A DNA stretch of 20,386 nt from a virus, in IMG/VR virus record IMGVR_UViG_3300048672_000211, positions 1-20,386 of that record. One strand, 5' to 3'. How positions within the stretch are numbered: the stretch's first letter is position 1; every line of letters starts with the position of its first letter. Below the pieces are notes generated by a model, which saw nothing but the letters and a program-made list of their open reading frames with translations, had not been told where the DNA came from and searched no databases. Both the position numbers and the translations under genes were made by a program. Below, one piece after another: positions 1,993-17,340 of this stretch.

Positions 1993-2000
1993 CATAAATA
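1993..2000 (+). promoter_or_regulatory. T4-late-like promoter box for the virion-like gene
   Basis: CATAAATA lies 26 bp before the ATG at 2027, with the predicted start near 2007. It is one mismatch from TATAAATA and forms a divergent pair with the box at 1975-1982. A TATAAT at 2005-2010 could be an alternative -10, but it has no -35 hexamer at 16-18 bp. Confidence 0.45.
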
Positions 2001-2026
2001 TTGATATAATTATAGATACTACCAAT

Positions 2027-2995
2027 ATGCGATTAAATTTCACACAAGGTATACTTTCATATCCTGCGATATCTAATATTCAACAATTTCTTGTATATGG
2101 AGCTCAATCAGTCAGTTTATCTACTGATTCGGGGAAAGTTGATGTTGTCTTTGCACATAAGGATGTTAATTACTTATTTACTGAGACCTCCACTGTATCT
2201 AATGCATGGATTAACTTATTAGATTTTGTCGATTATTGGTTGTATTGGGATATTGATGTTAGATCCGGACTTCGGACGTTTGGTGCTACTAACATAGCAC
2301 CCACTTACGGTCCAGTCGCTCCCACCATACTAATCGAAGGATTACATTGGTTTGATACTACTACCAACACTATGTTTGTTTATCACTTAGGAGCTTTCCG
2401 TGTGGTTGTCCGAGTATTTGCGGCTAAGGTAAACACTGGAACGTTTTTCTCGTTAGGTAATAATTCGTTATCTCCGTATGCTGGTTCGCAGGTGGGATTC
2501 GTCGGTAGTGTAGTAGCTGGTAGGATTTTACACGACACCACCAATAAACCAATCAAGAAATCGAGTGGAGCATTCCTAACTACTGAAGATGATGTGTTGG
2601 TACATGGAGTGTCTATTAATTCATTAAAGGTAGATAATATTGCTATAGTGGTTACTGCTGATGAAAATATATCAAAAAATTCAGTAGTGGTATTGTCCTC
2701 TTTTGATCACATTCGCCCTGCGGTATACGCTGACACGGATACTCATGTTGTAGCATTTGCATTGGATGATATGTTAGTAGGAACATCTGGTCCCATTGTA
2801 CTACAGGGAATTATACAAGATCCAACTTGGGTACTACCTACCGTAGGCCAACGCGTGTGGATATCTCCTACCATTCCAGGAGATATTGTCGTCACGAACC
2901 CACATGATACCGCCCCATTAACGTATCCAACTAATATGAGTTCAATAGGGAAAGCACTATCCCCAACTTCGATTTATTTTACTAATACTGGTTAA
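2027..2995 (+). CDS. Putative virion structural protein (fibre- or decoration-like)
   Basis: The product has 322 residues and no recognised catalytic motif. It is rich in beta-forming residues, Thr, Ser and Val, and poor in charge, like phage tail or fibre proteins. Residues 107-132 (HWFDTTTNTMFVYHLGAFRVVVRVFAA) fit a pattern of structural proteins in large phages, W-x-D-(x4)-N-x-M-x-V-Y followed by a V-R-V-F-A-A strand. The C-terminal third (about 200-322) contains repeated short strands such as VVVLSSFDHIRPAV and IVLQGIIQD that suggest a beta-rich attachment module. It has a late-like promoter box and no clear Shine-Dalgarno (leader actaccaat). Its isolated position next to lysozyme fits late expression. 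The structural assignment is an inference from composition and context. Confidence 0.55.
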   Translation: MRLNFTQGILSYPAISNIQQFLVYGAQSVSLSTDSGKVDVVFAHKDVNYLFTETSTVSNAWINLLDFVDYWLYWDIDVRSGLRTFGATNIAPTYGPVAPTILIEGLHWFDTTTNTMFVYHLGAFRVVVRVFAAKVNTGTFFSLGNNSLSPYAGSQVGFVGSVVAGRILHDTTNKPIKKSSGAFLTTEDDVLVHGVSINSLKVDNIAIVVTADENISKNSVVVLSSFDHIRPAVYADTDTHVVAFALDDMLVGTSGPIVLQGIIQDPTWVLPTVGQRVWISPTIPGDIVVTNPHDTAPLTYPTNMSSIGKALSPTSIYFTNTG

Positions 2996-3013
2996 ATGAA
3001 AAATTAATATCCC

Positions 3014-3069
3014 TCCTTGTTAATTGGAGTTATTTGATGTATAATAACTCCAATTAATGTTCACAAGGA
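3014..3069 (+). promoter_or_regulatory. Hairpin masking the RBS of the ATP-grasp gene, overlapping its promoter
   Basis: A perfect 15-bp inverted repeat (3020-3034 with 3043-3057, 8-nt loop) is flanked by an outer stem, TCCTTG (3014-3019) with CAAGGA (3064-3069). A 6-nt bulge separates the two stems on the right side. The outer right arm holds the Shine-Dalgarno AAGGA (3065-3069), 6 nt before the ATG at 3076. An RNA reading through from the gene at 2027 would fold and hide the RBS. An RNA from the embedded promoter (start near 3052) would lack the left arm. There is no T-run, so it is not an intrinsic terminator. Confidence 0.7.
3017..3045 (+). promoter_or_regulatory. Sigma70-like promoter of the ATP-grasp gene, inside the inverted repeat
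   Basis: TTGTTA (3017-3022), a 17-bp spacer and a perfect TATAAT (3040-3045). The predicted start near 3052 gives a leader of about 24 nt with AAGGA correctly placed. Because the promoter lies within the inverted repeat, a repressor bound there could also control it. Confidence 0.6.
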
Positions 3070-3075
3070 AATATT

Positions 3076-3927
3076 ATGTTTTGGCGAATACACGAAGCTG
3101 TAATTGGTGAAGATCGAGTAGCGGAAGTCACGCAAATTTTAACTGATATGGGAGATGAGTTGCAATTAGTTCGAGGAGCGACCCATCAATGTAGTCCATA
3201 CCCATTCGAAACTGTTGTTCCTCCTATATATGCAACTCATTTAACTACTATTCAGGATGCTAGACGAGCTCCTTTTTATATAACTACCTTATTTGATTCT
3301 GATCGATATAAGGTGAGCTATTACACGTCGTTATATTCATATGACGTTCCATTTCTCAATCGTGGTGGGGTATATCTTACCACCAAACAAGTATTGAATA
3401 CTAGTTGGATGTATCAATTTTGCCATCGGTTATGGGGAACTAATAAAGTATTCATTCGCCCTAATTCTGGAAATAAATTATTCACGGGGCAAACGGTTAT
3501 TATAGATTCTCAACACGAACAGGAGCTAGCATTCACATTAAAGTCTATGGATGATGATGCTATGATTTTAGTTAATAACCACGTTGAGTTATCCCCAGTT
3601 GAGTGGAGATTTTGGATAATAGATGGAAAGATAGCCACACAAACACCATATAGTTGGGAACTGGAGGATGGGGAATTAGTGGAACATCCTGATTACCAAC
3701 TATCAACCAAAGTGATTAGAGTAGTAGAGCGGGTGGTAGAAGAAGATCGTCAGGTAGATGTAGCATATGTGGTTGATGTTTGTATAGATGATATATCAGG
3801 TGACCCATACATATTAGAAATTAACTGCATTAACACATCTGGGGTGTATAAGGCACCTTTACGCCCATTACTATCAGGATTACGCCAAGCAATTATAACA
3901 ATAGAGGATGATTTAAATGGAATGTGA
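3076..3927 (+). CDS. ATP-grasp domain protein (R2K-like clade)
   Basis: The product has 283 residues. ATP-grasp enzymes join a carboxylate to an amine or thiol using ATP and an acyl-phosphate intermediate; R2K members are frequent in phages and their substrates are mostly unknown. The sequence shows the order expected: an N-terminal lobe, VFIRPNSGNKLFTGQTV (about 125-141) as the nucleotide-binding strand and loop, a central VNNHVELSPVEWRFWIIDGKI (166-186) with the E-x-R pattern, VVDVCIDD (232-239), and the metal-binding YILEINCINTSG (245-256) with E248 and N250. The start at 3076 has AAGGA 6 nt upstream. The 3' end overlaps prs by 11 bp, which suggests translational coupling with it. Substrate cannot be read from the sequence. 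Confidence 0.8.
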   Translation: MFWRIHEAVIGEDRVAEVTQILTDMGDELQLVRGATHQCSPYPFETVVPPIYATHLTTIQDARRAPFYITTLFDSDRYKVSYYTSLYSYDVPFLNRGGVYLTTKQVLNTSWMYQFCHRLWGTNKVFIRPNSGNKLFTGQTVIIDSQHEQELAFTLKSMDDDAMILVNNHVELSPVEWRFWIIDGKIATQTPYSWELEDGELVEHPDYQLSTKVIRVVERVVEEDRQVDVAYVVDVCIDDISGDPYILEINCINTSGVYKAPLRPLLSGLRQAIITIEDDLNGM

Positions 3928-4828
3928 TATTAAGTTATTTACAGGAACGTCTAATGTGGCGTTGGCACAGGGGATAGCCAATAATTTATCAATGCAGTTA
4001 TCAGACTCTACTATTGGTAGATTTCCTGATGGAGAAATACAATTAGAGTTGTTGTCTAATGTCCGTGGGTGTGACGCCGTAATCATTCAATCCACTTGTC
4101 CTCCGATTAATGATTCTATCATGGAATTGATGTTATTTGCTGATGCATTACGTCGGTCTGCTGTTAATAGCATCACTGCTGTAATTCCATATTACGGATA
4201 CAGTAGGCAGGATCGCCGCCCAGGGTATTCTCGGTCGCCAATTTCCGCAGCAGTTGTGGCTGATATGATACAAAATGTTGGGATTACTCACGTGGTATTA
4301 GTGGACATTCACGCTGCCCAGACGCAGGGATTTTTTCACATTCCAACTGATGTAATTGGAGTATCTCGGTTATATATAGATGACATACATCAACGATATT
4401 CTAATATGGATGATGTTGTCGTATGTGCTCCTGATGTAGGAGGCCCTTTGGTTGTGTTGGATAAGAGAAGAACGGGTCCAGGTCAATCAGAGGTGATGAA
4501 CATCATTGGAGATGTAACTGGAAAGCGTTGCATTTTAGTTGATGATATCGCTGATAGTTGTGGCACGATAAAATCAGCAGCTAATGTATTAACCGCTCAT
4601 GGGGCTGTTTCTATATCTGCGTATTGTGCTCATGGTATCCTATCCGGCCTTGCTTGTTCAAATTTGATGGATTCTAGTATATCGGAATTGGTGATTACAG
4701 ATTCTATCCCACTTTCGTCTGGAGCTAGCACTTGTCCCAAAATTAGACAGGTAACTATTGCTGGTATTTTATCAGATACCATACTACGTGTCCTATCTGG
4801 ACAATCTGTTAGTGAATTATCTAATTAG
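3917..4828 (+). CDS. prs: Ribose-phosphate pyrophosphokinase (PRPP synthetase)
   Basis: It makes PRPP from ribose 5-phosphate and ATP, feeding nucleotide and NAD synthesis; in phages it often accompanies a nicotinamide phosphoribosyltransferase, which is not in this window. The 303 residues show all main motifs: RFPDGE (35-40), the ATP-contact stretch YYGYSRQDRR (92-101), DIHAAQTQGFF (130-140), APDVGG (171-176), DKRR (182-185) and the PRPP loop LVDDIADSCGT (207-217). The Cys in this loop matches the DTCGT form of animal PRPS. Between DVGG and DKRR there are 5 residues where the E. coli enzyme has about 19, an in-frame loss of roughly 14 residues that removes a helix. The start has GAGGA 8 nt upstream and lies within the 3' end of the ATP-grasp gene. 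Confidence 0.95.
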   Translation: MECDIKLFTGTSNVALAQGIANNLSMQLSDSTIGRFPDGEIQLELLSNVRGCDAVIIQSTCPPINDSIMELMLFADALRRSAVNSITAVIPYYGYSRQDRRPGYSRSPISAAVVADMIQNVGITHVVLVDIHAAQTQGFFHIPTDVIGVSRLYIDDIHQRYSNMDDVVVCAPDVGGPLVVLDKRRTGPGQSEVMNIIGDVTGKRCILVDDIADSCGTIKSAANVLTAHGAVSISAYCAHGILSGLACSNLMDSSISELVITDSIPLSSGASTCPKIRQVTIAGILSDTILRVLSGQSVSELSN

Positions 4829-4842
4829 ATGTGCCTTGTTCA

Positions 4843-4850
4843 TATAAATA
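4843..4850 (+). promoter_or_regulatory. Exact T4-late consensus box TATAAATA
   Basis: TATAAATA lies in the 47-bp gap after prs and 25 bp before the ATG at 4876. The predicted start is near 4857. It is the only perfect match to the T4 late -10 consensus that I found in a gap directly upstream of a same-strand gene. It suggests that the helical unknown at 4876 is a late protein although it sits between early-type genes. Confidence 0.5.
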
Positions 4851-4875
4851 ATACATAAAATATGTGAGATGATTT

Positions 4876-5634
4876 ATGTTATTGTGCGAAACTGCTGTAG
4901 ACGTCTTAGGAGCAATTCCTCAAGTAATAAGAATATCCAATAGTCTGGCTGTATTATACGCAGCCACGATCCGGGGACAATTAGAAAAACTATATAGTGA
5001 AAACGAACATAGTGATATGAAGCGAACTACTCGATTTGTAGTTGGTCGGACTAAAGCTAAGTGGTTCACTGAAAATTACTTATCAACCACCCGCCATACT
5101 ACATCGGTACATGGGTTAAAGGCTGCGTTGCGTGTATTATCAGCATCCCCTGAATATCAGTCAGTTCGAAATGAATTAGTACAATTAGCTGCGTTGCAGG
5201 TTAATATGGATAATAAATTTAGACAAGAGCATGAAATTTCATATTCAGGTCACACTAGTACCATTGCTGGTCTACTACCGGTGATTTTGTCTAAAATGGC
5301 GAAGATTACGAAAAACCCACAACAAGCAGATGGATTAAATGCAGCGTCTCGTAAACTATCCACATCTGTTACTGAATTGCAAGCGTTGTGGGATCGGTTG
5401 CACAGCAAATGGGAACAAGAAAATCCAGATGAGTCCAAGCCAACTAAAACCAAGCCAGTAAAAGATGCATCTATTGGTCAACAATTATCACAAGCGGATC
5501 AAATGGTAGCTCAGATTTTATCATCATTGCCTGACAAAAAAGTGGCTCACGAAATCCGTACTAACATATCCAGATCTGACAATAAACTACAGGCATTGCT
5601 GGCTGAATTCACTAAACGTGGAATTAAAATGTAA
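4876..5634 (+). CDS. Hypothetical protein, mostly alpha-helical
   Basis: I do not recognise the family. The product has 252 residues, with long helix-forming stretches (about 1-40, 80-125, 130-180 and 205-252) and a Lys/Pro/Thr-rich linker near 183-198 (NPDESKPTKTKPVKDA) that divides a larger N-terminal part from a C-terminal helical part. There is no signal peptide or clear membrane segment; residues 8-32 are hydrophobic but broken by charged residues. The RBS is weak (GAG 8 nt upstream). An exact late-type box precedes it, so a virion or assembly role is possible but unproven. The downstream MazG-like gene has its own promoter and hairpin. Confidence 0.75.
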   Translation: MLLCETAVDVLGAIPQVIRISNSLAVLYAATIRGQLEKLYSENEHSDMKRTTRFVVGRTKAKWFTENYLSTTRHTTSVHGLKAALRVLSASPEYQSVRNELVQLAALQVNMDNKFRQEHEISYSGHTSTIAGLLPVILSKMAKITKNPQQADGLNAASRKLSTSVTELQALWDRLHSKWEQENPDESKPTKTKPVKDASIGQQLSQADQMVAQILSSLPDKKVAHEIRTNISRSDNKLQALLAEFTKRGIKM

Positions 5635-5641
5635 TCCAATG

Positions 5642-5670
5642 TTGTAACTTTAGTACATTCCTTGTACAAT
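5642..5670 (+). promoter_or_regulatory. Sigma70-like promoter of the MazG-like gene
   Basis: TTGTAA (5642-5647), a 17-bp spacer and TACAAT (5665-5670). The predicted start near 5677 lies in the loop of the inverted repeat 5654-5699. A locally started mRNA would therefore lack the left arm and keep its RBS free. Confidence 0.55.
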
Positions 5671-5699
5671 ATTATTTTTTAATTAATACAAGGAATGTA
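5654..5699 (+). promoter_or_regulatory. Perfect 13-bp inverted repeat masking the RBS of the MazG-like gene
   Basis: TACATTCCTTGTA (5654-5666) and TACAAGGAATGTA (5687-5699) are exact reverse complements, separated by a 20-nt AT-rich loop. The right arm contains the Shine-Dalgarno AAGGA for the ATG at 5701. The left arm overlaps the -10 element. This is the same layout as at 3014-3069 and 16191-16219. It could also be a DNA operator. Confidence 0.7.
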
Positions 5700-5700
5700 T

Positions 5701-6264
5701 ATGTCATTAGATAACTATATCGCTGATGCAGTAAGAACAGAGAGCCAATTAGATACAATCTCTACCAACAAAGAAGTATTATTGGCTGTCCTGCGATTGA
5801 GCATTGCATCTGGTAACTTATTGGATATGGTAAAGAAAGAAATATTCTACGGTAAACCGATTGATCAAACTCGTTGGTGGAATTATCTGTGTGATGCTGA
5901 AACTCAAATGCATGAAATTGAAGATGGTTCATTTGAGGTCCCAGTCCAAGATTGTCCTGAGATTGGTTGTAACACTAGATTGCTACATTCTGCTATTGGA
6001 ATAAGCACAGAAGGAGCCGAATTACTAGAAGCTATGGTATCCCATTTAACAGATGGTACTCCGATTGATGAAGTAAATTTCAGAGAAGAGATTTTCGACA
6101 CTATGTGGTATGGTCTGATTGCACATGATGCAATGCGATCATCTATCGATAAAACTCTTATTGCTGGGTTTAACAAATTAAGAGCGCGATATCCTGATAA
6201 ATTTACATCTGAGGATGCAATTAACCGAGATTTAGATGTAGAGCGAGCTATTTTGGAACAATAG
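5701..6264 (+). CDS. MazG-like nucleotide pyrophosphohydrolase
   Basis: All-alpha NTP pyrophosphohydrolases hydrolyse (d)NTPs or related alarmone-type nucleotides to monophosphates; phage members are often proposed to tune ppGpp or clean up dNTPs. The 187-residue product shows the metal-site pattern in the right order: TEGAELLEAM (103-112, E104 and E107), EEIFDTMWY (129-137, E130 and D133) and then FNKLRARYPDKFTSEDA (157-173), followed by a RDLDVERAIL tail typical of phage MazG-like proteins. The N-terminal 90 residues are an extra helical part. I chose the ATG at 5701 because AAGGA is 6 nt upstream; the in-frame ATG at 5695 lies inside the hairpin arm without an RBS. The substrate is not predictable. 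Confidence 0.85.
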   Translation: MSLDNYIADAVRTESQLDTISTNKEVLLAVLRLSIASGNLLDMVKKEIFYGKPIDQTRWWNYLCDAETQMHEIEDGSFEVPVQDCPEIGCNTRLLHSAIGISTEGAELLEAMVSHLTDGTPIDEVNFREEIFDTMWYGLIAHDAMRSSIDKTLIAGFNKLRARYPDKFTSEDAINRDLDVERAILEQ

Positions 6265-6310
6265 GTCGATTATAACCAATTGTTTGTTGTTGTAATTTCT
6301 GTAAGCGTCG

Positions 6311-6336
6311 TGGGTGATACGTATCCCCCATAAATA
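6311..6336 (+). promoter_or_regulatory. Palindrome abutting a late-like box (CATAAATA)
   Basis: TGGGTGATACGTATCCCCCA (6311-6330) is a 20-bp palindrome with one mismatched pair and no loop, so it is more likely a protein-binding site than an RNA hairpin. It runs into CATAAATA (6329-6336). The predicted start near 6343 would give a leader of about 138 nt for phoH. Confidence 0.4.
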
Positions 6337-6424
6337 GTATTAGTACTACCCTGCATATTTGTGTCTATTGTGACATAGCAGTATTTGAAGTCATGATTGT
6401 CACCTGCAGGTTAGCTGCATCCTC

Positions 6425-6452
6425 CTACAACAAGCAATTCCGCTTGTTGTAG
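6425..6452 (+). promoter_or_regulatory. Strong RNA hairpin in the phoH leader
   Basis: CTACAACAAGC (6425-6435) and GCTTGTTGTAG (6442-6452) form a perfect 11-bp stem with loop AATTCC. No T-run follows, so it is not a normal terminator. It ends 16 nt before the GGAG of phoH and does not cover it. It may stabilise the message or mark a processing site. Confidence 0.6.
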
Positions 6453-6480
6453 TGACTATCAATCATCATGGAGATATCGC

Positions 6481-7269
6481 ATGTCTAGACAACGCACAGT
6501 AAAAGCCAGAACCAAGTCGAAAAATCAATCCGCTGCTGTATACGAATTATCTAATGCCTTAATCAATAACTACGAAGCTCGTAAAATAGGCCCCAAAGCC
6601 AAAACATGGCACATCCGGGATATGGTCAATATCCAGCCGCTAACAGAAACTCAGAAAGATTTCTTTGCTGCCTTTTACAGTGGAGCTGATGTAATCGGAG
6701 TGGGAAGTGCTGGAACTGGAAAAACGTTCATCTCATTATACTTAGCAATCAGTGATATATTGGATCCCCAACAACCTCAGCAAAAATTAATTATTGTTAG
6801 GTCCAATGCAGCTTCTCGTGAGATGGGGCATTTGCCGGGTACTGCCGAAGAAAAGATGTCAGGATTTGAAGCACCATATCGTGTTATTCTTAGTGAGTTA
6901 TTCGGTCGCGAATCAACGTATGATGATATGAAGGAAGCGGGAATAATCGAATTCGTATCTACTTCGTTTATTAGAGGTATGACTTGGTCTGATAGTTTTG
7001 TGTTGTGTGATGAAATACAAAATCTCAACTTACATGAAATTGACACAGTAGTAACCAGACTTGGTGACACGTCTCGATTAATTGGGGTAGGTGATATTAG
7101 ACAAACTGATTTAATTTATAAAAAGAATGATGTAAGTGGATTGGGAGCAGCATTGCAAGTGTTTGCTAGAATGCCTACTGTATCAACAGTCACCTTTACT
7201 AAAAATGACATCGTCCGTTCTGGATTGTGTCGCGATTGGATAGTCGCCAGGGAAGACTTAAACTTATAG
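6481..7269 (+). CDS. phoH: PhoH-like ATPase
   Basis: PhoH-like proteins are P-loop NTPases of the RecD-like helicase fold, common in phages; RNA-related roles have been proposed. The 262-residue product contains Walker A GVGSAGTGKTF (73-83), Walker B SFVLCDEIQN (172-181), an SFIRGMTW loop (162-169) and sensor GVGDIRQTD (202-210), all in the family order. The N-terminal 50 residues are basic and could bind nucleic acid. The start at 6481 has GGAG 8 nt upstream; the leader carries a hairpin. An intrinsic terminator starts 7 bp after the stop, so phoH ends its transcription unit. Confidence 0.93.
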   Translation: MSRQRTVKARTKSKNQSAAVYELSNALINNYEARKIGPKAKTWHIRDMVNIQPLTETQKDFFAAFYSGADVIGVGSAGTGKTFISLYLAISDILDPQQPQQKLIIVRSNAASREMGHLPGTAEEKMSGFEAPYRVILSELFGRESTYDDMKEAGIIEFVSTSFIRGMTWSDSFVLCDEIQNLNLHEIDTVVTRLGDTSRLIGVGDIRQTDLIYKKNDVSGLGAALQVFARMPTVSTVTFTKNDIVRSGLCRDWIVAREDLNL

Positions 7270-7275
7270 TCCGAT

Positions 7276-7318
7276 AACTCAAGAGTTGAGGTGAAAAATC
7301 CAACTCTTGAGTTTTTTT
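7276..7318 (+). terminator. Intrinsic terminator after phoH
   Basis: AACTCAAGAGTTG (7276-7288) pairs with CAACTCTTGAGTT (7301-7313), and the right arm runs into seven T residues (7312-7318). This is a textbook rho-independent terminator. It separates phoH from the Thg1-to-phosphoesterase run. Confidence 0.92.
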
Positions 7319-7368: not shown

Positions 7369-8148
7369 ATGGCTAAGCACAGTTACGACGATCTCAGCAC
7401 TCGTATGAAAAAATACGAAGCAGCATCAGGTGGCATTTTAGTTCCTCGCATGCCCGCCATCATCCGATTGGATGGCAAAGCATTCCATACATTTACCAGA
7501 CGACGGTGCGATCGTTCAGTAGCATATGACCCAATCATGCATGATGTTATGTGTCATACTATGTTAGGGTTAACTCGTACTATACAAAACGTCAAATTTG
7601 GGTACACCCAATCCGATGAAATTTCTCTGTTGTTGATTGATTATACATCCCATACCAGTAGTCAGTGGTTCGATGGAAAAATTCAGAAGATAGTATCAGT
7701 CGCCGCCGCTGCTGCTACTGCTAATTTTACATATTGGTGGAATTTGTTACATCCTGACGATCAGCTGTCGTTGTGTGATCTTCCTATGTTTGACGCTCGA
7801 GTCTTCACGGTACCGGAATCTGATGTGTGTAATGCGTTCATCTGGCGACAACAAGACGCAATGCGCAATGCGGTTCAAATAATAGGAAGGCATCATTACA
7901 GCCACACAGAAATGCACGGCAAATCCTGTAAAATTATTCGAGAGTGTTTACAACGGGATCACAATATCGAGTGGCAACGTGATGTGCCTACTTGGCAGAG
8001 ACATGGTACTGCTATGTGCAGACAACCCGGTGGATGGGCAGTAGACCTATCCATGCCTATGATATCACAAAACCGCCATTATGTTGAACAATATATACCA
8101 GGGATTAATTTAAAAAGTTCCGATGACACAACCAACAATAGTATTTGA
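7369..8148 (+). CDS. Thg1-like tRNA 3'-5' nucleotidyltransferase
   Basis: Thg1 enzymes add nucleotides to RNA 5' ends in the 3'-5' direction; Thg1-like proteins (TLPs) repair truncated tRNA 5' ends in vitro. The 259-residue product has the metal-binding strand IIRLDGKAFHTFTRR (31-45, D35) and YTQSDEISLLL (79-89, D83 and E84). The conserved block after IWRQQDA (158-164) reads MRNAVQ instead of the HINNLYN of eukaryotic tRNA-His guanylyltransferases, which points to a TLP. I chose the ATG at 7369 (AGGA 8 nt upstream, residues MAKHSYDDLSTRMKKYE); the frame is open further up, but that region is terminator and promoter. It heads a 12-gene run, overlapping the next gene by 26 bp. No tRNA gene lies in this window. 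Confidence 0.9.
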   Translation: MAKHSYDDLSTRMKKYEAASGGILVPRMPAIIRLDGKAFHTFTRRRCDRSVAYDPIMHDVMCHTMLGLTRTIQNVKFGYTQSDEISLLLIDYTSHTSSQWFDGKIQKIVSVAAAAATANFTYWWNLLHPDDQLSLCDLPMFDARVFTVPESDVCNAFIWRQQDAMRNAVQIIGRHHYSHTEMHGKSCKIIRECLQRDHNIEWQRDVPTWQRHGTAMCRQPGGWAVDLSMPMISQNRHYVEQYIPGINLKSSDDTTNNSI

Positions 8149-16172: not shown

Positions 16173-16201
16173 TTGATTTAACACAACAACCCTCGTATAA
16201 T
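16173..16201 (+). promoter_or_regulatory. Sigma70-like promoter for homing-endonuclease-like gene 2 and the topoisomerase cleavage subunit
   Basis: TTGATT (16173-16178), 17-bp spacer and TATAAT (16196-16201). The predicted start near 16208 gives a leader of about 20 nt carrying GGGGA 7 nt before the ATG at 16228. A short repeat TCAAC/GTTGA (16161-16176) overlaps the -35. The rest of the 120-bp gap (16108-16160) shows nothing I can name. Confidence 0.6.
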
Positions 16202-16219
16202 ATTATTTAATTTACGGGG
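16191..16219 (+). promoter_or_regulatory. Inverted repeat masking the RBS of homing-endonuclease-like gene 2
   Basis: CCTCGTA (16191-16197) pairs with TACGGGG (16213-16219), seven pairs including one G-U, with a 15-nt loop. The right arm holds most of the Shine-Dalgarno GGGGA. The -10 element overlaps the left arm and the loop, so a local transcript lacks the left arm. It is the weakest of the three hairpins of this type. Confidence 0.55.
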
Positions 16220-16227
16220 ATTTTTTT

Positions 16228-17340
16228 ATGAAATTGACCAAGAAAATGAAAGAATGGCTTATGATTAACGATAAAGAATGGCCAATTAAATGTAAAATGT
16301 GCTATAATGACGTTAAGTGGCAAGCATCGCATGGTAGATTTAGTACTTACTGCTGTAGTATCTGTTATCACGCGGATACTGAGGTATTTGATGTCAGACG
16401 GTTGACTAATTTAGATAGATATGGAACCGAATCTCCACTGAGCTCTCCTATTATCCGGGAAAAGATAAAAGCTACTAATTTAGATAGATATGGACACGAA
16501 AATATTGCTCAAGGGACAAAGAAAGAAAAAGTTACAGTAACCAACATGGAACGATATGGAACTAAATCCCCCCTTAGTTCTCCTATTATTAGAGATAAAC
16601 AAAGGGCAACTAATTTAGAGAGACACGGACACGAATCCCCGTTTGGTTCTGATGTAGTTAAGTCGAAAGTTGCATCTACTAATTTAGAGAGATATGGACA
16701 CAACAACGCTCTTAGTTCTCCTGGTATTCGAGAAAAAGTTAAATCTACTAATTTAGAACGATATGGAACTGAATTTGCTGGTCAGAAGGATATAGTAGAT
16801 GCACTTCCGTTGCTACTAGACTCACATTGGTTATTTGACCAATATATATCACAAAACAAACCATCAACACAAATAGCATATGAACTGGGAGATGTGTATT
16901 ATGGCACCATTATCTCTCACCTACGGAAAGCAGGAATAGAAATTAGAAATACATGCACTAGTTACGCAGCGAATCAATGGCTCGACTCATTAGGAATTAC
17001 AGAAAGAGAATATCAATGGCACCCAACTAATACTCGGTTACGATCAGATGGATACTGCCCAATAACGAATACTATTTATGAATTCCATGGTGATTATTGG
17101 CATGGAAATCCAGCTAATCAAGACCAAGCAAAAATATTCCATGGAGATGTGACCTTGGGAGACAAATACAGAAATACCAAGTTAAGAGAAGAAGAGATTC
17201 TGGCTTTGGGATATAATTTAGTAGTTATGTGGGAAAATGATTGGAGAAATATAACCCATAGAGCGGTAGATGTCCAACCGAGTGCCATCCTATCAACCAA
17301 TACGTCGTCATTGAAGACACGGGAGACTCATGAAAATTAA
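16228..17340 (+). CDS. Homing-endonuclease-like protein with Vsr-like C-terminal nuclease domain and six NLxxYG repeats (copy 2)
   Basis: The product has 370 residues and is a paralogue of the protein at 418-1497. Its N-terminus differs: a compact zinc finger with C22-x2-C25 and C43-x2-C46 replaces the DUF723-like part. Residues 59-182 carry six repeats of (A/S/V)TN(L/M)xRYG, then an HTH-like segment (STQIAYELGDVYYGTIISHLRKAGIEIR), then the nuclease block SDGYCPITNTIYEFHGDYWHG (273-293) and GYNLVVMWEND (328-338). After that the two copies diverge. It lies between the phosphoesterase and the topoisomerase cleavage subunit and overlaps the start of the latter by 11 bp. It has its own promoter and an RBS-masking repeat, as known for T4 I-TevI. 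Free-standing homing is inferred, not shown. Confidence 0.8.
   Translation: MKLTKKMKEWLMINDKEWPIKCKMCYNDVKWQASHGRFSTYCCSICYHADTEVFDVRRLTNLDRYGTESPLSSPIIREKIKATNLDRYGHENIAQGTKKEKVTVTNMERYGTKSPLSSPIIRDKQRATNLERHGHESPFGSDVVKSKVASTNLERYGHNNALSSPGIREKVKSTNLERYGTEFAGQKDIVDALPLLLDSHWLFDQYISQNKPSTQIAYELGDVYYGTIISHLRKAGIEIRNTCTSYAANQWLDSLGITEREYQWHPTNTRLRSDGYCPITNTIYEFHGDYWHGNPANQDQAKIFHGDVTLGDKYRNTKLREEEILALGYNLVVMWENDWRNITHRAVDVQPSAILSTNTSSLKTRETHEN
16402..16773 (+). repeat. In-gene tandem repeats, six units encoding TNLxRYG (copy 2)
   Basis: Six units of about 66-69 bp share a core close to actaatttagatagatatgga. Units 1, 3 and 5 end in a similar (L)SSPxIR(E/D)K motif, while 2 and 4 differ, so the array looks like an alternating two-type repeat. 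Copy 1 at 625-984 has the same unit length and count. Confidence 0.85.

What the first reader, a model, noticed from the sequence alone, without database searches (positions are those of the whole stretch)
3014..3069. Promoter inside an RBS-masking hairpin, with a late gene upstream
The 15-bp inverted repeat plus outer stem pairs the Shine-Dalgarno of the ATP-grasp gene with upstream RNA. The sigma70-like -10 (3040-3045) lies within the structure, so only read-through RNA contains both arms. Read-through would come from the virion-like gene, which has a late-like box. The logic would be that late read-through RNA is translationally silent for the ATP-grasp and prs genes. In T4, genes e, 49 and I-TevI are reported to use this device in the reverse order (early read-through masked, late promoter inside). 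Here the direction appears swapped. That inversion is my inference.
Basis: partly seen in the sequence, partly recalled or inferred. Interest (0 to 1): 0.7.

Follow-up and report, generated by a model that had tools for sequence, protein, structure and literature searches.

The report
Early promoter inside RBS-masking hairpin
In front of two nucleotide-metabolism genes of an uncultured T4-like phage, a hairpin hides the ribosome-binding site in any RNA that runs in from upstream but leaves it free in RNA started at the gene's own promoter; the same arrangement turns out to be common in front of early genes of phage T4 and its relatives, so it is real and probably functional but not an inversion unique to this phage.

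Summary
The hairpin is real. A 15-bp perfect repeat (3020-3034/3043-3057) acts as a clamp. An outer 6-bp helix (3014-3019/3064-3069) pairs the Shine-Dalgarno (SD). A sigma70-like promoter (TTGTTA-17-TATAAT) lies inside. Predicted cost of opening the SD is 7.4 kcal/mol in read-through RNA and 1.6 in RNA from the internal promoter.

It is not unique in the window. The MazG-like gene (start 5701; 11.4 vs 0.0) and an HNH-type gene (16228; 6.3 vs 1.9) have the same layout. Gene 2027 is virion-like and carries a T4-type late box, as does gene 4876, so two masked genes sit directly behind late-box genes.

The claim that the direction is swapped relative to T4 fails. T4 itself has at least nine early genes (regB, denV, modB, alc, mrh.2, alt.-3 and others) with the early promoter inside an SD-masking hairpin: 9 of 32 early-promoter leaders against 0.8 expected. 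The denV hairpin is present in 17 of 21 distinct leaders against 1.5 expected, with different stem sequences.

Most likely function: translation private to the gene's own promoter. Silencing late RNA specifically is plausible here but is not the general rule. The reviews I could read describe this device only for late genes. No expression data exist.

The parts
3014..3019 (+). left arm of the SD-masking (outer) helix, TCCTTG
   Evidence: fold; SD is freed when the RNA 5' end lies 3' of about 3018
3020..3034 (+). left arm of the 15-bp clamp stem
3043..3057 (+). right arm of the 15-bp clamp stem
3064..3069 (+). right arm of the outer helix, CAAGGA, holding the Shine-Dalgarno AAGGA of the ATP-grasp gene
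3017..3022 (+). -35-like TTGTTA
3040..3045 (+). -10-like TATAAT; predicted start about 3052
   Evidence: start inferred
3076..3927 (+). R2K-clade ATP-grasp gene
   Evidence: Pfam PF14243/PF18299
3917..4828 (+). ribose-phosphate pyrophosphokinase (prs), overlapping the ATP-grasp gene
1993..2000 (+). T4-type late box CATAAATA, 34 nt before gene 2027
2027..2995 (+). virion-like gene; homologous to the N-terminus of collagen-repeat fibre-like proteins of G002
4843..4850 (+). exact late box TATAAATA, 33 nt before gene 4876
4876..5634 (+). gene of unknown function with late box, directly upstream of the second hairpin
5653..5700 (+). second SD-masking hairpin (arms 5653-5666/5687-5700) with -35 TTGTAA 5642-5647 and -10 TACAAT 5665-5670; MazG-like gene, likely start 5701
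   Evidence: 11.4 vs 0.0 kcal/mol, p 0.001
16191..16219 (+). third, weaker SD-masking hairpin (CCTCGTA/TACGGGG) with -35 TTGATT 16173-16178 and -10 TATAAT 16196-16201; DUF7487 HNH-type gene 16228
   Evidence: (6.3 vs 1.9, p 0.04)

Best explanation
The 3014-3069 element is a cis-acting filter on transcript origin. RNA that enters from upstream, most likely from late-box gene 2027 (no terminator-like site was found between them), carries both arms. The 15-bp clamp then holds TCCTTG against CAAGGA, so the ribosome cannot reach the SD of the ATP-grasp gene, and prs, which overlaps it, may be silenced with it. RNA started at the internal sigma70-like promoter (about 3052) lacks the left arm, has a free SD and is translated. 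The gene pair is thus made only when its own, presumably early, promoter fires. The same device serves the MazG-like gene at 5701 and probably the HNH-type gene at 16228. It belongs to a class found here in T4-like phages, where a minority (about 10-28%) of early-promoter leaders hide their SD in this way. Shown: the sequences, the predicted pairing, its excess over shuffles, its recurrence in relatives. Inferred: promoter activity and timing, read-through, folding in the cell, translational effect.
For: Structure z -5.2. Opening cost 7.4 to 1.6 kcal/mol when the left arm is lost. Three leaders in the window with the same layout, p 0.01, 0.001 and 0.04 each with promoter and SD held fixed. No + strand terminator-like site between 2995 and 3076 or between 5634 and 5695. 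Late boxes before 2027 and 4876 and virion-like homology of 2027. Masked (7 kcal/mol or more) early-promoter leaders, observed vs shuffle expectation: T4 9/32 vs 0.80, relative G002 12/49 vs 2.12, G009 7/35 vs 1.70, G014 4/22 vs 1.18. denV leaders: 17/21 vs 1.45, maximum 5 in 200 shuffles, with many different stem sequences. G002 also shows the clamp-plus-outer-helix form with -10 in the clamp (leaders of 1988- and 2414-).
Against: No relative of this locus was found, so the hairpin at 3014-3069 itself has no covariation test; the distant ATP-grasp homologue in G002 lacks it. SD masking alone is only p 0.01 for this leader. The promoter call is a consensus match, and such matches are not in excess in the window as a whole. 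G012 is not significant and G018 shows none. Enrichment behind late genes was not found elsewhere.
Confidence: 0.72

Rival explanations
1. The dyad is a DNA operator: a repressor binds the 38-bp palindrome over the -10 region and shuts the early promoter off; RNA pairing is a by-product.
For: Perfect 15-bp dyad centred close to the -10. The 15-bp part does not itself hold the SD.
Against: The pairing continues outside the dyad to the SD through an asymmetric bulge, which a symmetric operator does not need. The second and third leaders in the window have unrelated stem sequences. In denV relatives stem sequence and position vary while SD pairing persists.
Confidence: 0.1
2. The hairpin is an RNA-processing or stability element, or an attenuator or weak terminator, between the late gene and the early pair.
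For: Long stem directly after the stop codon of gene 2027; phage intercistronic stems are often processed (general knowledge).
Against: No run of T after the stem, not called as terminator, and pairing extends to the SD. Shuffle tests in T4 and relatives show an excess of SD pairing specifically.
Confidence: 0.08
3. SD masking at this locus is chance in an AT-rich leader; the strong stem has some other or no role.
For: 1% of shuffles mask the SD as well, and 26 leaders were examined; the distant homologue lacks it.
Against: Three leaders in one 20-kb window; stem z -5.2; same class in excess in T4, G002, G009, G014 and denV.
Confidence: 0.1

Closest known systems
T4 genes e, soc, 49, I-TevI (and I-TevII, segB, Aeh1 mobE): promoter inside an RBS-sequestering hairpin
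   Same: SD hidden in read-through RNA; a promoter placed inside frees it (PMC3014915, PMC2988022). e, I-TevI, I-TevII, segB and 49 are recovered by the same scan.
   Different: There the inner promoter is late and the masked RNA early or middle; here the inner promoter is sigma70-like and the likely masked RNA late.
T4-like early genes with an early promoter inside an SD-masking hairpin (regB, denV, modB, nrdC.8, alc, alt.-3, mrh.2, 30.8, e.8), identified here
   Same: Same direction and geometry: -10 about 31-37 nt before the ATG in most, left arm near or between -35 and -10, SD free in the short RNA.
   Different: T4 promoters have TTTAC-type -35 boxes; most are not directly behind a late gene; different, non-homologous gene at this locus.
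IS10/IS50/IS200-type protection of transposase from outside transcription (from memory; not tested)
   Same: Read-through RNA folds over the RBS; the inner promoter gives translatable RNA.
   Different: Mobile-element transposase genes; no kinship to this locus.

Membership tests
T4 late-type RBS-hairpin device (e, I-TevI) | SD or AUG paired in RNA from upstream promoters | tested here: met
   SD opening 7.4 kcal/mol
T4 late-type RBS-hairpin device (e, I-TevI) | promoter placed so that its RNA lacks the 5' arm | tested here: met
   -10 at 3040-3045, predicted start 3052, opening 1.6 kcal/mol; promoter activity untested
T4 late-type RBS-hairpin device (e, I-TevI) | inner promoter is a late (TATAAATA) promoter | tested here: not met
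   TATAATAA, not NATAAATA; no late box at 3000-3076
T4 late-type RBS-hairpin device (e, I-TevI) | helix lowers 30S binding and translation | not testable with these tools
   needs toeprint or reporter
early-promoter-in-SD-hairpin class of T4-like phages (defined here) | sigma70-type promoter of at least 9/12 with -10 about 25-50 nt before the start | tested here: met
   10/12, -10 at -36
early-promoter-in-SD-hairpin class of T4-like phages (defined here) | SD opening at least 7 kcal/mol long, about 3 or less short | tested here: met
   7.4 and 1.6; 11.4/0.0 for 5701; 16228 falls just short at 6.3
early-promoter-in-SD-hairpin class of T4-like phages (defined here) | conserved SD pairing with changing stem sequence among relatives of the same gene | tested here: inconclusive
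   met for denV and regB; no close relatives of the window gene
intrinsic terminator | stem followed by a T run | tested here: not met
   sequence after 3057 is TGTTCACAAGG
described RNA element (Rfam) | match at gathering score | tested here: not met
   no match in the window

The most novel reading that the evidence does not exclude
T4-like phages use one structural trick in both time directions: late promoters inside hairpins keep late proteins out of the early phase, and early promoters inside hairpins keep early proteins out of the late phase. In this phage the second form sits at both places where an early gene directly follows a late-box gene, so that late read-through RNA cannot restart early nucleotide metabolism.
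Probability: 0.35. Interest if true: 0.7.

Novelty: new variant of a known kind. Interest (0 to 1): 0.55.

Why it matters
A review states that the T4 genes controlled by RBS-sequestering hairpins 'are all late genes' (PMC2988022), and the other two T4 reviews read do not mention early ones in the passages searched. The scan here suggests that 9 of 32 T4 early-promoter leaders, and nearly all denV leaders of T4-like phages, carry the device. If confirmed, it explains how tightly packed phage genomes with leaky termination keep immediate-early proteins tied to their own promoters, and it gives a simple design rule (place a promoter between an SD and its complement) that can be tested in T4 at once. 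Older papers not held here may already have noted such stems; from memory, one 1986 T4 sequence paper reports stem-loops before denV and the gene later named regB.

Tried and rejected
ATP-grasp homologue in G002: no hairpin. MazG homologues in L018 and L020: no hairpin; the L004 homologue has one (13.5 kcal/mol) but only a weak promoter match, 7/12. Terminator and known RNA family: rejected. Late read-through as the general purpose: not supported (2/35 vs 3/132; relaxed late box in G002 1/17 vs 0/56; both low power). My first start for the MazG-like gene (5695) hid its SD from the scan; 5701 is better spaced and used. The arm-swapping test is biased because arms were taken from predicted pairs, so I rest on the shuffle test. 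Gene calls for phages other than T4 are my own simple ORF caller (220 of its 241 T4 starts equal the annotated ones).

Full report
WHAT THE WINDOW IS. The window is a complete 20386-base virus record, classed as a possible fragment. Its genes (PhoH, DNA topoisomerase II subunits, ClpP, MazG-like, Thg1, prs, phage lysozyme) fit a large T4-like phage. DNA similarity to known phages over 2000-7000 is absent. The nearest relatives by PhoH are about 50% identical; L004, in the 292-kb record G002, is the most useful.

THE OBSERVATION. The perfect 15-bp repeat and the fold are as described. The SD lies in the outer helix 3014-3019/3064-3069; the 15-bp stem is a clamp. The predicted cost of opening the SD falls from 7.4 to about 2 kcal/mol once the RNA starts 3' of about 3018, and is 1.6 for a start at 3052. 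Keeping promoter hexamers and SD fixed and shuffling the rest gives p 0.01. The TTGTTA-17-TATAAT site is one of the best matches in the window, but a consensus match is not proof.

NOT ALONE. Two further leaders in the window hide the SD in a hairpin with a promoter-like site inside: the MazG-like gene (best start 5701; 11.4 vs 0.0 kcal/mol; p 0.001) and the DUF7487 HNH-type gene at 16228 (6.3 vs 1.9; p 0.04).

LATE GENES UPSTREAM. NATAAATA occurs 8 times on both strands. Four of these lie 31-37 nt before gene starts: 2027, 4876, the lysozyme gene at 1951 (minus) and 19084 (minus). Gene 2027 matches the N-terminus of long proteins of G002 at 32-35% identity. One of these (G002 228122, 1111 aa) contains collagen repeats and has GATAAATAC in its leader. 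In G002, GTATAAT, TAAATAC and ATAAATA are enriched about 30-fold at 20-48 nt before starts, which supports separate early and late promoter classes in this lineage. Thus 3076 and 5701, two genes with the device, each directly follow a late-box gene, with no terminator-like site called in between.

COMPARISON WITH T4. I scanned 272 annotated T4 starts for the cost of opening the SD. Known cases came up (e rank 1, I-TevII 7, I-TevI 9, segB 13, 49 rank 19; soc, I-TevIII and mobE did not). Many other top leaders are early genes with an early promoter inside: nrdC.8, modB, regB, denV, alt.-3, e.8, 30.8, mrh.2, alc. Of 21 leaders at 7 kcal/mol or more, 18 contain an early or late promoter, against 64 of 251 others (Fisher p 6e-8). 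Because both features favour intergenic leaders, I repeated the test within leaders of at least 45 intergenic bases (15/16 vs 39/79, p 7e-4) and by shuffling with promoter and SD fixed: T4 9/32 observed vs 0.80 expected; G002 12/49 vs 2.12; G009 7/35 vs 1.70; G012 3/29 vs 1.40 (not significant); G014 4/22 vs 1.18; G018 0/25 vs 0.70. For denV, 17 of 21 distinct leaders are masked against 1.45 expected, maximum 5 in 200 shuffles; four 345-378-kb phage records lack it. Stem sequence, and even the position of the left arm relative to the -10, differ between phages. This fits selection on SD pairing rather than on a protein-binding site.

PURPOSE. In T4 some cases fit by gene order (soc then mrh.2, alt then alt.-3, e/ipIII/ipII then denV), but overall masked early genes are not clearly enriched within 1.5 kb of an upstream late promoter (2/35 vs 3/132, p 0.28; a rank test gives p 0.03 but pools unlike phages). 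The safer statement is that the gene is translated only from its own promoter's RNA, whatever the read-through is. In this window that read-through would be late.

LITERATURE. PMC3014915 and PMC2988022 describe the device for late genes and homing endonucleases, the latter noting that the genes so regulated are all late genes. PMC2988021 does not mention it in the passages searched. Further searches found nothing on an early form. Most old T4 papers are not held, so novelty of the early class is not established.

LIMITS. No expression data; thermodynamic predictions only; no close relatives of the locus; simple gene caller for relatives. The thresholds (7 kcal/mol; 10/12 promoter match) were chosen by me after seeing the T4 ranking.

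Noticed in passing
7276-7313: Perfect 13-bp inverted repeat (AACTCAAGAGTTG/CAACTCTTGAGTT) followed by TTTTTT after the PhoH gene: a likely intrinsic terminator missed by the scan because of its 12-nt loop, with a promoter-like site (TTGAGT-17-TATTAT) overlapping its right arm and T run.
   Followed up: partly
7369-8148: Thg1 (tRNA-His guanylyltransferase) homologue in a phage (Pfam PF04446, E 7e-28).
   Followed up: no
418-1497 and 16228-17340: Two DUF7487/HNH-type genes of the same family with repeated 'TNLERYG' units. The second has an SD-masking leader like some T4 homing endonucleases; the first has a palindrome GTATTATTTATAATAC in its leader but no SD.
   Followed up: partly
L011 1988 and 2414 (minus strand): Two neighbouring leaders of G002 share a nearly identical SD-masking hairpin with TTGACA-TATAAT inside, as if the leader had been duplicated with its gene.
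   Followed up: no
G002 186978, 196372 (L024) and 228122 (L026): Three large genes of G002 share the N-terminal domain of window gene 2027; the one read through (228122) has long collagen-like repeats. The leader of 186978 shows a hairpin TTCCCTA/TAGGGAA around a late-like CTAAATAC, i.e. the T4-type late form in the same phage.
   Followed up: partly
L021, L030, L031 (T4): T4 late genes 51, 53, 26, 4 and alt also place TATAAATA inside an SD-masking hairpin, beyond the commonly cited e, soc, 49 and I-TevI.
   Followed up: partly
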